Source: Gammaproteobacteria bacterium
Lineage (GTDB): Bacteria > Pseudomonadota > Gammaproteobacteria > Thiohalospirales > Thiohalospiraceae
Reading direction: 5' to 3'
DNA: 64,000 nt
NCBI GenBank assembly: GCA_015491735.1
Contig: WFVH01000037.1
Location: 1-64,000, forward strand
The notes under the pieces were generated by a model. That model ran no database searches. It was not told the origin of the DNA and worked only from the letters and a program-made list of their open reading frames with translations. Made by a program: the position numbers and the translations under genes. Shown here in pieces: positions 37,403 to 49,190 of this stretch. Positions within the stretch are counted from its first letter, which is position 1, and each line of letters starts with the position of its first letter.

Positions 37403-37459
37403 GAAACTTTTTTGTTTACTCGCGGCTGGGTGCAGGGCCGCTGTTGATGAGGGTTGTTC

Positions 37460-39076
37460 GTGAAAGATAGTTTGAAGAGACAGACAATATGGCGAGAGTC
37501 CCCATGGATGTGGGCGGCTCTGGTGGCTCTGTTTGGGCTGCTGGTGCTTATTTTTTACGACGGTCTCTACGCAATGGTGCAGGCATGGAAGAGAGAAGAG
37601 TACAGCCATGGCTACATGATTCCGCTGGTCGTGGCCTTTCTCATCTGGCAGAAAAAAGATCAGCTGGAGAAGATCCGGTTCGACGACTCCTGGATTGGTG
37701 TCGCTTTTGTCCTCCTGGGAATTGGACTCTATTTTCTGGGAGAGCTAAGCACCCTCTATATCATTATCCAGTATGCCTTTCTGGTGACCCTGTTTGGGGT
37801 CGTGTTCTGCCTGGTTGGCCGTGAAGGTATGCGGAACATATGGATTCCGCTACTCTTTCTGGGCTTCATGATCCCCCTTCCATCATTTATTTTCAATAAC
37901 TTGTCGGCCCTCCTTCAGCTGATCTCTTCGGAATTGGGGGTGGCGGTAATCCGCCTTTTCGGTGTCAGCGTCTATCTGGAGGGGAATGTTATCGACTTGG
38001 GCAACTACCAGCTGCAGGTGGTAGAAGCCTGCAACGGGCTGCGCTACCTGTTCCCGTTGATGAGTCTGGCTTTTTTGTGCGCCTATTTTTTCAAGGGGGC
38101 TTTCTGGAAACGGGCAGTTATCTTCATTTCCAGTATTCCCATCACGGTACTGATGAACAGTTTTCGCATTGGTGTCACGGGTGTTCTCGTTGACTACAAA
38201 GGTATTGCGATGGCCGAGGGGTTTCTGCATGACTTCGAAGGCTGGTTCATCTTCATGAGTTGTCTGGCCATTCTTCTTGGTGAAATGTGGCTACTGTCCA
38301 AAATAGGCCGCGACGGCAAACGCCCATTGCGCGAGGTGTTCGGTCTGGATTTTCCTGAACCCTCTCCACAAGGCGCTTCCATACGCTATCGATCGTTGCC
38401 AAAACCGTTCATTTTCTCAGCGGTTTTATTGGCGGTGACCGCAGCATCCTCCTTTCTGCTGGTACAGAGAGAGGAAATCATCCCCTCGCGCACGGATTTT
38501 TCCGCTTTCCCGTTGCAAATAGGTGATTGGCAGGGAAAGGGTGAGCGCATGGAGCAAATCTATGTCGATGCGCTCAAGTTTGATGACTACATCATGGCGA
38601 ATTTTGCCAATGGAACCGGCGGGGTCGTCAATTTCTACGTTGCCTATTACGGCTCGCAGAGAAAGGGGGAGTCGGCCCATTCCCCCCGTTCATGCCTGCC
38701 GGGGGATGGGTGGCAGATGACCGGATTGACGGTGAAGCAGGTGGACGATGCGCATATCAATGGTGTTCCGTTGAAGGTAAACCGTGTCGAGATCCAGAAA
38801 GGGGAGTACAAGCAACTGGTCTACTATTGGTTCCAGCAGCGGGGCCGGATAATAACAAACGAGTATTTGGTAAAATGGTACCTGTTTTGGGATGCGCTGA
38901 CCAAAAACCGCACCGATGGGGCGTTGGTCAGATTGACTACACTGGTGCTGCCAAACGAGGATATGAGCGATGCGGAGAGGCGGCTTGATAACTTTACCAA
39001 AAGCGTTGCCGGCGTACTGGACGGTTATGTCCCGGGTGCTGATGCGGATCCTCCGCAGATTGTGGCTCACAATTGA
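37460..39076 (+). CDS. xrtD: Exosortase XrtD fused to an EpsI domain (VPLPA-CTERM-specific type)
   Basis: A 538-residue protein. Residues 1 to about 300 form a multi-pass exosortase with the transpeptidase triad Cys191 (VVEACNGLRYLFPL), Arg236 (LMNSFRIGVTG) and His257 (FLHDFEGWFIF). After a further membrane segment near residue 315 comes a periplasmic EpsI/DUF3485 domain (DFSAFPLQIGDWQGKGERM, HSPRSCLPGDGWQM). Exosortases cleave the C-terminal sorting tag of exported proteins and attach or release them at the cell surface. Assignment to XrtD rests on the EpsI fusion and the VPLPA-CTERM substrate nearby. GTG at 37460 is preferred because GAGGG lies 6 bases upstream; TTG at 37454 is less likely. 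prsT follows. Confidence 0.85.
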   Translation: MKDSLKRQTIWRESPWMWAALVALFGLLVLIFYDGLYAMVQAWKREEYSHGYMIPLVVAFLIWQKKDQLEKIRFDDSWIGVAFVLLGIGLYFLGELSTLYIIIQYAFLVTLFGVVFCLVGREGMRNIWIPLLFLGFMIPLPSFIFNNLSALLQLISSELGVAVIRLFGVSVYLEGNVIDLGNYQLQVVEACNGLRYLFPLMSLAFLCAYFFKGAFWKRAVIFISSIPITVLMNSFRIGVTGVLVDYKGIAMAEGFLHDFEGWFIFMSCLAILLGEMWLLSKIGRDGKRPLREVFGLDFPEPSPQGASIRYRSLPKPFIFSAVLLAVTAASSFLLVQREEIIPSRTDFSAFPLQIGDWQGKGERMEQIYVDALKFDDYIMANFANGTGGVVNFYVAYYGSQRKGESAHSPRSCLPGDGWQMTGLTVKQVDDAHINGVPLKVNRVEIQKGEYKQLVYYWFQQRGRIITNEYLVKWYLFWDALTKNRTDGALVRLTTLVLPNEDMSDAERRLDNFTKSVAGVLDGYVPGADADPPQIVAHN

Positions 39077-41727: not shown

Positions 41728-41864
41728 GCTTGCCTTGCCTGCCAGACGAGGGTCCCGCCTACGCTGGTTTTTGAGGAGCCATTTACCTGTCACCGGGCTT
41801 GCTATTTCTGTCACTTGTGCCCGGTCGCTGTTTTTCCCTCTCCCCGTGTCGGCTTTTTTTACGA

Positions 41865-41890
41865 GTCAATTTGATTAGGATAAAATTGAC
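41865..41890. promoter_or_regulatory. Dyad operator, possible enhancer-binding-protein site
   Basis: GTCAATTT-N10-AAATTGAC is a perfect 8-bp dyad spanning 26 bp. Its centre is about 185 bp upstream of the sigma-54-type element at 42063, within the 100-200 bp range usual for enhancer-binding activators such as PrsR-type regulators. The link to a specific regulator is inference; no regulator gene lies in the window. Confidence 0.45.
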
Positions 41891-42062
41891 TGCACCTTTT
41901 AACTGGCTGTTTTTAAAATAAGTTTTTAAATCACAGCGTGAGCTGTTCGGTTCAGAAAGAGTAGCAACCTGCTCCAGGTGTGTTGATTTTTTTTACAAAT
42001 CGCTTCCTTGTTGAACAAAAGCAGGAGTCTAACATATTGATAGATGGGGGGATGTTTCGGGT

Positions 42063-42079
42063 CTGGCGCAAATAGTGCA
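42063..42079 (+). promoter_or_regulatory. Sigma-54 (-24/-12) promoter of the VPLPA-CTERM gene
   Basis: CTGGCGCAAATAGTGCA has the essential GG and GC dinucleotides separated by exactly 10 bp, and TGGCGC is one base from the TGGCAC consensus. Transcription would start near 42090, about 37 nt before the ATG at 42127. Confidence 0.6.
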
Positions 42080-42126
42080 TTATTTTTGTCTGGATAATAA
42101 TACAACTTAAGTTAAGGAGCAAAACA

Positions 42127-42756
42127 ATGAGCAGTAGACGCAAACTGGGTATGTTGCTGGGAGGCATGTTTTTCACTCTTTCAGCCAACGCGGCAGTTAC
42201 CGGGTACACCAGTGGAGTGGAGAACATTCCGGATTTGAGTGGTGGTTATGACGTTACCCATCCGGGTACCGAAAACGACAAGGTTGTCGTGTTTCAGGAG
42301 AAGTACTCTTTCCAGCTCGACAGTGATCTGGTTACCGATAGTGGCACCATCGGCGCGGGCACCTATATTGGCAGCTATCTGGTCAACTACAGCCCGGTAG
42401 GCACCGGCCCCCGCAGTTCGGGACTTCAGGAGATATCATTCAGTGACGAGATATTGGGTGTTATTTATACCACCAGCGGACTGAATGCGACAGACGGCCT
42501 GCTCGGGCATGACAATGTGTCCTATCCAACCGGCACCTACAACTGGCGAGGCTTGGAAGGGGGGGCTGACACCGTCACCTTCGTCGATGCGACGGTAGCC
42601 CAGATTTTGAATACCGTTAACAACGGTGTCGATCAGATGCGTGTTATCACCGCGGCGCCTGTACCGCTGCCTGCTGCGGTCTGGATGTTTGGCGCAGGCC
42701 TTCTCGGGCTGGTTGGCTTTGCCCGGCGATCGGCAAAAAAGGCTGCTGTTGTTTAG
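42127..42756 (+). CDS. VPLPA-CTERM sorting-domain surface protein
   Basis: A 209-residue exported protein. It has an N-terminal signal peptide (KLGMLLGGMFFTLSANAA) and a mature region rich in Gly, Ser, Thr and Asn without a recognised enzyme fold. The C-terminal tripartite sorting signal consists of APVPLPAAVWMF, a hydrophobic helix GAGLLGLVGFA and a basic cluster RRSAKKA. VPLPA at this position is the tag processed by XrtD-type exosortases, so this is the probable substrate of the enzyme at 37460-39076. Its function, perhaps in biofilm matrix or surface layer, is unknown. It has its own sigma-54-like promoter and ends at a strong terminator. Confidence 0.88.
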   Translation: MSSRRKLGMLLGGMFFTLSANAAVTGYTSGVENIPDLSGGYDVTHPGTENDKVVVFQEKYSFQLDSDLVTDSGTIGAGTYIGSYLVNYSPVGTGPRSSGLQEISFSDEILGVIYTTSGLNATDGLLGHDNVSYPTGTYNWRGLEGGADTVTFVDATVAQILNTVNNGVDQMRVITAAPVPLPAAVWMFGAGLLGLVGFARRSAKKAAVV

Positions 42757-42781
42757 GATTGTCTTTTGCGCCAGGGCGCAG

Positions 42782-42811
42782 AGCGCGAACCGGCCGGTTC
42801 GCGCTTTTTTT
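42782..42811 (+). terminator. Intrinsic terminator after the VPLPA-CTERM gene
   Basis: A perfect 24-bp palindrome (42782-42805, arms AGCGCGAACCGG and CCGGTTCGCGCT) is followed directly by a run of T to 42811. It closes the VPLPA-CTERM transcript and separates it from the convergent JAMM protease gene. Confidence 0.9.
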
Positions 42812-42846
42812 ATGCCTTGAACGGCTGCATGAATTGATTTTGCCGT

Positions 42847-47396: not shown

Positions 47397-49190
47397 ATGA
47401 GCGTACCTATCCATCAAGGACAGATCTCCATCAAGGGTAAAGCCGGTTTTTTGAAGGCTGGTGTCTGTCTGACGCGAATTCGCCTGCCGGCAATGGCGTT
47501 TGCCCTGGCCATTACCCTGTTGGCGGCCTGTGCCACGCATCTGCCTGTACCGGAGAGCGGAGATGGCTCTTTGGCGATGCAGCAAACCGCAGCACAACGC
47601 TCCCCCAAGGCCGATCTGCTCTATGACCTGCTGGTGGGGGAGATAGCCGGGCAGCGGGGAGCCGTCAACATATCGGCCGAAAACTATCTGCGAGCCGCGC
47701 GCCTTTCGGGTGATCCGCAGATAGCGGAGCGGGCAGCGAAAATAGCCGTTTTTGCCGGCGATGACAAAAAGGCACTGGAGGCCGCCAGGAAATGGGTGAC
47801 ACTGGCGCCGGAGGATGCCGAAGCACAGCAGGTGGTCGCCATCATGTACCTGCGCAACGGGCAGGTGGAAAAGGCGATACCCTATCTGCAGCGGATACGG
47901 CAGTCGAACGCGCATCAACCGTACAAAGGGTTTATGTTCGTTGCGCGCCTGCTGAGCCGCGAGAAGAACAAAGAGACCGCCCTGCAGGCCATGTCCCGCC
48001 TGGTGGAGAGATACCCCGAGGAAGCGGAGGCCCAGTTCGCCTATGCCCATCTGGCGATGCAGGCGCGGCAGTATGCCAAGGCGCACAAGCTGCTGGACAA
48101 GGTGATCTCCCTGCGTCCTGACAGGGCAGATGCCTACGTGCTGCGGGCCAATCTCTATCGGGCCGAAGGCGATATCGAGTCGGCCTCGAAGGCCTATCGG
48201 CAGGCGATTAGGCTGAATCCCGGCAACCTGGAGACGTCGCTCTCCTACGCCCGTATGCTGGTGGAAGCCCGCCGCTTTCAGCAGGCCCGGGAAGCGTTCA
48301 AGCAGCTGGAGGCGCGTGCCCCCGACAATGCCGATGTCCTGTTCGCCCTGGGGTTGCTGGCGCTCCAGGCCGAGCAGAACGAGGAGGCCAAAAGATATTT
48401 TTCCATGTTGATTGAGAAAGGCCAGCGAGTCGAGGATGCCAGTTTTTTCATTGGCCGTATAGCCGAGACCGAAACAGACAATCCAGAGGCGCTGCGCTGG
48501 TATCGAAAGGTGACCAGTGGCGTGAATCATGCCGAGGCCCGAATCCGCATTGCCGTTCTTACGGCGAGGCAGGGTGACCTGGAAGCAGCCCGTCAGATAC
48601 TGCACGAACTTGCGCAGGACGATCCGCGCCATGAGGTGCGCGCCCTTCTTGTGGAGGGGGATATCCTGAGGAGATCCGGGCAGAACAGTGAGGCGTTTGA
48701 GGTGCTTGGACGCGGTCTGGAGAAATACCCCGACAATCCACAACTGCTCTATGCTCAAGCGTTGACAGCGGAACGGATCGATCGTCTCGATGTGCTGGAA
48801 CAGAATCTGAACAGAATGTTGAAGGCGGATCCCGACAATGCGCAGGCGTTGAACGCACTGGGGTATACATTGGCTGATCGCACCCACCGTTACGAAGAGG
48901 CGTACCGCTACGTGAAGCGTGCCCTGGAAATCGAGCCGGATGATGCGGCCATTCTGGATAGCATGGGTTGGGTACTCTATCGGCTGGGCCGCTATTCAGA
49001 GTCAATCGGGTATCTGCGCCGCGCGCTAAAGAGAACCAGGGACGGTGATCCGGAGATTGCCGCCCATCTGGGGGAGGTTCTGTGGGTTTCCGGTGACCGG
49101 GATGCAGCGCGCAAGGTGTGGGAACAAGCGCTGAAGCAGTTCCCTGATGACGAGAAACTTCGCAACACTGTTGAAAGGCACTTGAAATGA
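47397..49190 (+). CDS. Tetratricopeptide-repeat lipoprotein upstream of lolB
   Basis: A 597-residue predicted lipoprotein: a basic N-terminus, a hydrophobic stretch (MAFALAITLL) and lipobox LLAAC with Cys45. The rest is a chain of about 12 TPR motifs, such as ADAYVLRANLYRAEGDIESASKAYRQAIRLNPGN and LNALGYTLADRTHRYEEAYRYVKRALEIEPDD. Such TPR proteins are conserved next to lolB between hemA and ispE in gammaproteobacteria; the molecular function is not established. ATG at 47397 leaves a rather long n-region; an internal ATG just before MAFALAIT is an alternative. It overlaps lolB as ATGA. Confidence 0.88.
   Translation: MSVPIHQGQISIKGKAGFLKAGVCLTRIRLPAMAFALAITLLAACATHLPVPESGDGSLAMQQTAAQRSPKADLLYDLLVGEIAGQRGAVNISAENYLRAARLSGDPQIAERAAKIAVFAGDDKKALEAARKWVTLAPEDAEAQQVVAIMYLRNGQVEKAIPYLQRIRQSNAHQPYKGFMFVARLLSREKNKETALQAMSRLVERYPEEAEAQFAYAHLAMQARQYAKAHKLLDKVISLRPDRADAYVLRANLYRAEGDIESASKAYRQAIRLNPGNLETSLSYARMLVEARRFQQAREAFKQLEARAPDNADVLFALGLLALQAEQNEEAKRYFSMLIEKGQRVEDASFFIGRIAETETDNPEALRWYRKVTSGVNHAEARIRIAVLTARQGDLEAARQILHELAQDDPRHEVRALLVEGDILRRSGQNSEAFEVLGRGLEKYPDNPQLLYAQALTAERIDRLDVLEQNLNRMLKADPDNAQALNALGYTLADRTHRYEEAYRYVKRALEIEPDDAAILDSMGWVLYRLGRYSESIGYLRRALKRTRDGDPEIAAHLGEVLWVSGDRDAARKVWEQALKQFPDDEKLRNTVERHLK

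What the first reader, a model, noticed from the sequence alone, without database searches (positions are those of the whole stretch)
41865..42079. Sigma-54 promoter plus upstream dyad controlling the VPLPA-CTERM gene
CTGGCGCAAATAGTGCA at 42063-42079 has GG-N10-GC spacing, and a perfect GTCAATTT-N10-AAATTGAC dyad lies about 185 bp further upstream, the placement of an enhancer-binding-protein site. Known: PEP-CTERM genes in some floc-forming bacteria depend on RpoN with the PrsK/PrsR pair. The dyad could be the binding site of the activator here.
Basis: partly seen in the sequence, partly recalled or inferred. Interest (0 to 1): 0.6.

Follow-up and report, generated by a model that had tools for sequence, protein, structure and literature searches.

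The report
PrsR-controlled sigma-54 promoter, tandem boxes

Summary
Both features are real: CTGGCGCAAATAGTGCA (42063-42079) is a good -24/-12 element, and the GTCAATTT-N10-AAATTGAC dyad is exact (41865-41890). The sigma-54/PrsR idea is well supported, but the dyad is almost certainly not the activator site. Haft et al. 2006 described the PEP-CTERM promoter as a 17-nt box ending TTTACA, about 63 nt of spacer, then a -24/-12. The window has exactly this: TGTTGATTTTTTTTACA at 41981-41997, 65 nt before the -24/-12, plus a second box at 41847-41863. A matrix trained on non-orthologous promoters ranks these as the two best box matches in the window. Three diverged orthologues keep both boxes and the spacing; the dyad has 0 of 28 invariant positions and occurs nowhere else in the genome. 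The genome holds one each of PrsK, PrsR, RpoN and exosortase (XrtD, in the window). Box pairs precede 5 of 8 tag-gene candidates and epsB2-prsK-prsR. There the promoter is followed, in six of eight genus members, by a conserved ~115-nt structured, terminator-ended RNA candidate absent from Rfam. The window promoter is a new member of a known kind; the RNA is the novel lead.

The parts
37454..39076 (+). xrtD, VPLPA-CTERM-specific exosortase; the only exosortase found in the genome
   Evidence: TIGR04152 602 bits, cut-off 400; TIGR02602 finds no other in the genome
39301..41727 (+). prsT, TPR-repeat lipoprotein of the PEP-CTERM system
   Evidence: TIGR02917 349.6 bits, cut-off 312.2
41847..41863 (+). 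distal PrsR box (PEP-CTERM motif 1), TGTCGGCTTTTTTTACG
   Evidence: 2nd best box match in the window with a matrix of non-orthologous promoters; a distal box is kept in three orthologues, 11/17 positions invariant
   Evidence: exact; unique in the genome; 0/28 positions invariant in four orthologues
41981..41997 (+). proximal PrsR box (PEP-CTERM motif 1), TGTTGATTTTTTTTACA
   Evidence: best box match in the window; 65 nt from the -24/-12; kept at 63-65 nt in three orthologues
42063..42079 (+). sigma-54 -24/-12 element (PEP-CTERM motif 2), CTGGCGCAAATAGTGCA
   Evidence: GG-N10-GC kept in three orthologues
42114..42119 (+). ribosome-binding site AAGGAG (read directly from the sequence)
   Evidence: inference
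42127..42756 (+). VPLPA-CTERM protein gene, 209 aa, target of the promoter
   Evidence: TIGR03370 27.6 bits, cut-off 25.35; orthologues in G006, G003, G005 at 82, 71, 63% identity
42780..42812 (+). intrinsic terminator closing the single-gene unit
   Evidence: 12-pair stem and T run; -20.4 kcal/mol

Best explanation
The region is a PrsK/PrsR-controlled sigma-54 promoter of the published PEP-CTERM-box type. Shown by sequence: two 17-nt boxes (41847-41863 and 41981-41997), a -24/-12 65 nt after the proximal box, one each of prsK, prsR and rpoN in the genome, and the same box pair in front of other tag genes and of epsB2-prsK-prsR. Inferred: the membrane kinase PrsK phosphorylates PrsR; PrsR, an NtrC-type activator, assembles on the boxes and drives open-complex formation by sigma-54 polymerase at 42063-42079, with a start near 42090; the tag protein is then exported and processed by XrtD. 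The distal box probably adds a second PrsR dimer site. The dyad is a lineage-private inverted repeat that this step does not need.
For: Published motif 1 / spacer / motif 2 architecture matched at 65 nt (published 62.8 +/- 10.6) and 47 nt to the start codon (published mean 71). Matrix from 14 non-orthologous promoters ranks the two boxes 1st and 2nd in the window; no shuffle of 2000 reaches the pair score. Profile built without the window finds it at E 0.0024 and lists only regulon sites in the genome. All four strict-pattern matches in the genome are upstream of VPLPA-CTERM genes. Boxes and spacing kept in three orthologues. Single PrsR, PrsK, RpoN and exosortase. RpoN-dependent tag gene beside prsT shown by experiment in Aquincola (PMC9850573).
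Against: No experiment on this organism. The -12 half is TGC rather than the usual TTGC. Seven other NtrC-type proteins with a sigma-54 activator domain are in the genome, so another activator is not formally excluded. Three of eight tag-gene candidates lack a good pair. Over 12 genomes the strict pattern is no commoner than its reversed control, so the case rests on location, spacing and conservation rather than on number.
Confidence: 0.87

Rival explanations
1. The dyad at 41864-41891 is the enhancer site of the activator (PrsR or another NtrC-type protein).
For: A perfect 9-bp inverted repeat about 170-200 nt upstream of a -24/-12 is a plausible enhancer position; only 10 of 400 shuffles of the region give such a repeat.
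Against: Absent from all other tag genes and from three orthologous promoters, where 0 of 28 positions are invariant; no similarity to the box (score -0.4).
Confidence: 0.03
2. The dyad is the operator of an additional, species-specific regulator that modulates the distal box, since it starts at the next base after that box.
For: Direct adjacency to the distal box (41863/41864) and a symmetric, near-perfect 28-bp dyad.
Against: No second copy in the genome; not kept in relatives. 15 comparable inverted repeats occur in the window, so chance remains a fair account.
Confidence: 0.1
3. The gene is read from an ordinary sigma-70 promoter and the -24/-12 match is accidental.
For: A 9/12 sigma-70-like site TTTACG-N17-TAAAAT lies at 41858-41886, over the distal box and dyad; -24/-12-like matches are common by chance.
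Against: About one such sigma-70-like site is expected per shuffle of the region; it would leave a 240-nt leader; box plus -24/-12 at near-fixed spacing is kept while the surrounding bases are not.
Confidence: 0.05

Closest known systems
PEP-CTERM-box promoter (motif 1 + motif 2) with PrsK/PrsR/PrsT, Haft et al. 2006 (PMC1569441)
   Same: [quoted passage not shown] repeated motif 1 was already noted there
   Different: Here the only exosortase is XrtD and the tags are VPLPA-CTERM; two boxes 134 nt apart; a box pair also stands before epsB2-prsK-prsR
pepA of Aquincola tertiaricarbonis RN12 (PMC9850573)
   Same: Tag gene next to prsT, -24/-12 promoter with a predicted enhancer upstream; start site and RpoN dependence shown there by experiment
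   Different: Gene order differs (here prsT precedes the tag gene); the window protein is below the PepA family cut-off (28 against 80 bits); no experiment for this organism

Membership tests
PEP-CTERM-box (PrsR) sigma-54 promoter | 17-nt motif 1 with 3' end TTTACA | tested here: met
   TGTTGATTTTTTTTACA at 41981-41997; published description (the logo itself was not available as text)
PEP-CTERM-box (PrsR) sigma-54 promoter | spacer of 62.8 +/- 10.6 nt (32-92) to motif 2 | tested here: met
   65 nt; 63-65 nt in orthologues
PEP-CTERM-box (PrsR) sigma-54 promoter | motif 2 with -24(GG)/-12(GC) | tested here: met
   42063-42079
PEP-CTERM-box (PrsR) sigma-54 promoter | single-gene unit with more than 200 nt of non-coding DNA upstream | tested here: met
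   399 nt between prsT and the gene; terminator at 42780-42812
[quoted passage not shown]
   all over curated cut-off
PEP-CTERM-box (PrsR) sigma-54 promoter | PrsR binding and RpoN-dependent transcription | not testable with these tools
   needs footprinting and mutants
XrtD / VPLPA-CTERM sorting system | VPLPA-CTERM tag and XrtD exosortase, both over cut-off | tested here: met
   TIGR03370 27.6 (cut-off 25.35), TIGR04152 602 (cut-off 400)
Flocculation protein PepA (NF033554) | score over the curated cut-off of 80 bits | tested here: not met
   28 bits; a distant resemblance only

The most novel reading that the evidence does not exclude
PrsR controls its own operon region and, from that promoter, a genus-conserved ~115-nt structured RNA (G000:C62 16238-16123, minus strand) that ends in a terminator. 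It is either a free small RNA of the exopolysaccharide/sorting regulon or a terminating leader in front of epsB2-prsK-prsR.
Probability: 0.6. Interest if true: 0.55.

Novelty: new member of a known kind. Interest (0 to 1): 0.38.

Why it matters
It moves the predicted activator site of a sorting-tag promoter to the right bases, so that a binding or mutation test would not be spent on the wrong palindrome. It gives a regulon with near-fixed spacing, tandem boxes and apparent self-control for a genome whose only exosortase is XrtD, and it adds a candidate regulatory RNA to a system for which a search of the held papers showed no regulatory RNA.

Tried and rejected
Dyad as a shared operator: rejected. 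Dyad as terminator of prsT: the hairpin folds (-8.3 kcal/mol) but is A/T-rich and no T run follows. Rfam over the promoter region and the RNA candidate: nothing at threshold, only sub-threshold matches. The candidate as a micro-ORF (MIRG...): disfavoured, since an inserted T in G006 shifts the frame and later residues are not kept. Box pairs near prsK in more distant genomes G021 and G047: none found in the stretches fetched. Literature on VPLPA-CTERM/XrtD regulation: none beyond the PrsK/PrsR papers.

Full report
WHAT IS THERE. The -24/-12 is at 42063-42079; the dyad is at 41864-41891 with 9-bp perfect arms. The gene downstream encodes a VPLPA-CTERM protein (TIGR03370 over cut-off), is preceded by xrtD and prsT, and is closed by an intrinsic terminator at 42780-42812. 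The window lies in a 2.43 Mb genome of 101 contigs (G000).

A repeat search showed a direct repeat in the intergenic region: GTGTCGGCTTTTTTTACG at 41846 and GTGTTGATTTTTTTTACA at 41980. Haft et al. 2006 describe, upstream of proteobacterial PEP-CTERM genes, a 17-nt motif 1 ending TTTACA and sometimes repeated, then 62.8 +/- 10.6 nt, then a 17-nt sigma-54 motif 2, then on average 71 nt to the start codon; motif 1 was proposed as the activator (PrsR) site (PMC1569441). The window gives 65 nt and 47 nt. In Aquincola a tag gene beside prsT has an experimentally mapped, RpoN-dependent start and a similar predicted enhancer (PMC9850573).

TESTS. (a) A strict pattern GTGTN8TTTACA-N50-80-GGN10GC has four matches in the genome, each upstream of a VPLPA-CTERM gene. 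Over 12 genomes the pattern is no commoner than its reversed control, so location, not number, is the evidence. (b) Weight matrices found two more pairs, at the C2 tag gene and upstream of epsB2-prsK-prsR on C62. (c) A profile built from ten pairs, leaving the window out (but including three orthologues of its promoter), scored the window at E 0.0024 in its genome and listed only regulon sites there. In relatives it found held-out sites at tag genes (G003:C98, G006:C194 twice) and at epsB2 (G003, G004, G006, G007). (d) To remove the orthologues, a matrix was trained on 14 pairs not orthologous to the window gene. It ranks 41981 and 41847 first and second of the whole window (23.8 and 19.3, next 13.6) and the -24/-12 second of 127,970; none of 2000 intergenic shuffles reaches the pair score. 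(e) Orthologues in G006, G003 and G005 (82, 71, 63% identity) keep two boxes 133, 122 and 130 nt apart (134 in the window) and a GG-N10-GC 65, 64 and 63 nt after the proximal one. Invariant positions in the four-way alignment: distal box 11/17, proximal box 8/17, -24/-12 7/16, dyad 0/28.

ACTIVATOR. The genome has one PrsR (724 bits, cut-off 502.6), one PrsK (746, cut-off 300), one RpoN (496, cut-off 277) and one exosortase, the XrtD of the window. All five genus members in which XrtD was found also have PrsK. prsK and prsR follow epsB2 (TIGR03013, 554 bits) on C62, reading frames overlapping or nearly so. Because a box pair stands before epsB2 in six genus members, PrsR probably feeds back on its own expression. 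That is inferred: the promoter lies roughly 500-800 nt from epsB2 and a terminator intervenes.

MECHANISM, with status. Boxes, spacing, -24/-12 and gene content: shown by sequence. PrsR occupying the boxes, phosphorylation by PrsK and activation of sigma-54 polymerase: inferred from the family (NtrC-type) and the literature. Role of the distal box: inferred from conservation. Role of the dyad: none supported; it abuts the distal box and looks private to this lineage.

SIDE FINDING. Directly after the epsB2-side promoter lies a ~115-nt block, near-identical in five genomes (G000, G001, G003, G004, G006) and present but diverged in G007, while flanking DNA has drifted. Predicted structure: a 5' hairpin, two conserved hairpins and a terminator. 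97.4% of cells pair, five pairs have changes on both sides (5 of 500 shuffles reach that), and slid controls pair at 38-54%. There are only six sequences and the structure came from the same alignment, so support is moderate, and most covariation is in the terminator stem. Single sequences fold 3.9-4.1 SD better than shuffles. No Rfam family matches at threshold.

VERDICT. The promoter is a new member of a known kind, with the activator site corrected. The RNA is the item worth further work.

Noticed in passing
G000:C62:16238-16123 (-), in L047; same block in L092, L094, L095, L096 and L136: Conserved ~115-nt structured RNA candidate with terminator directly downstream of a PrsR-box sigma-54 promoter, between that promoter and epsB2-prsK-prsR; found in six of eight genus members, not in Rfam.
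   Followed up: partly
G000:C62:16512 (-) region, and aligned sites in G001, G003, G004, G006: A second, distal box variant (TGTYRG-N-ATTTTGACG) about 170 nt upstream of the proximal box at the epsB2-side promoter, kept in all five aligned genomes; the two-box layout recurs there.
   Followed up: partly
G000:C25:26240-27286 (-), C33:5109-5774, C62:19775-20833 (-): Three tag-gene candidates without a good box pair; C25 has a box-like TGTCAGGAGTTTTTACA but no convincing -24/-12. They may be regulated differently.
   Followed up: no
window 47397-49190: A second TPR protein resembling PrsT but below the PrsT cut-off (193.9 against 312.2 bits), next to the hemA/prfA genes.
   Followed up: no
L053 (G055:C1) and L056 (G019:C7): XrtD is present in G055 and in the incomplete G019 without a detectable PrsK, so XrtD systems may exist without this regulator.
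   Followed up: no
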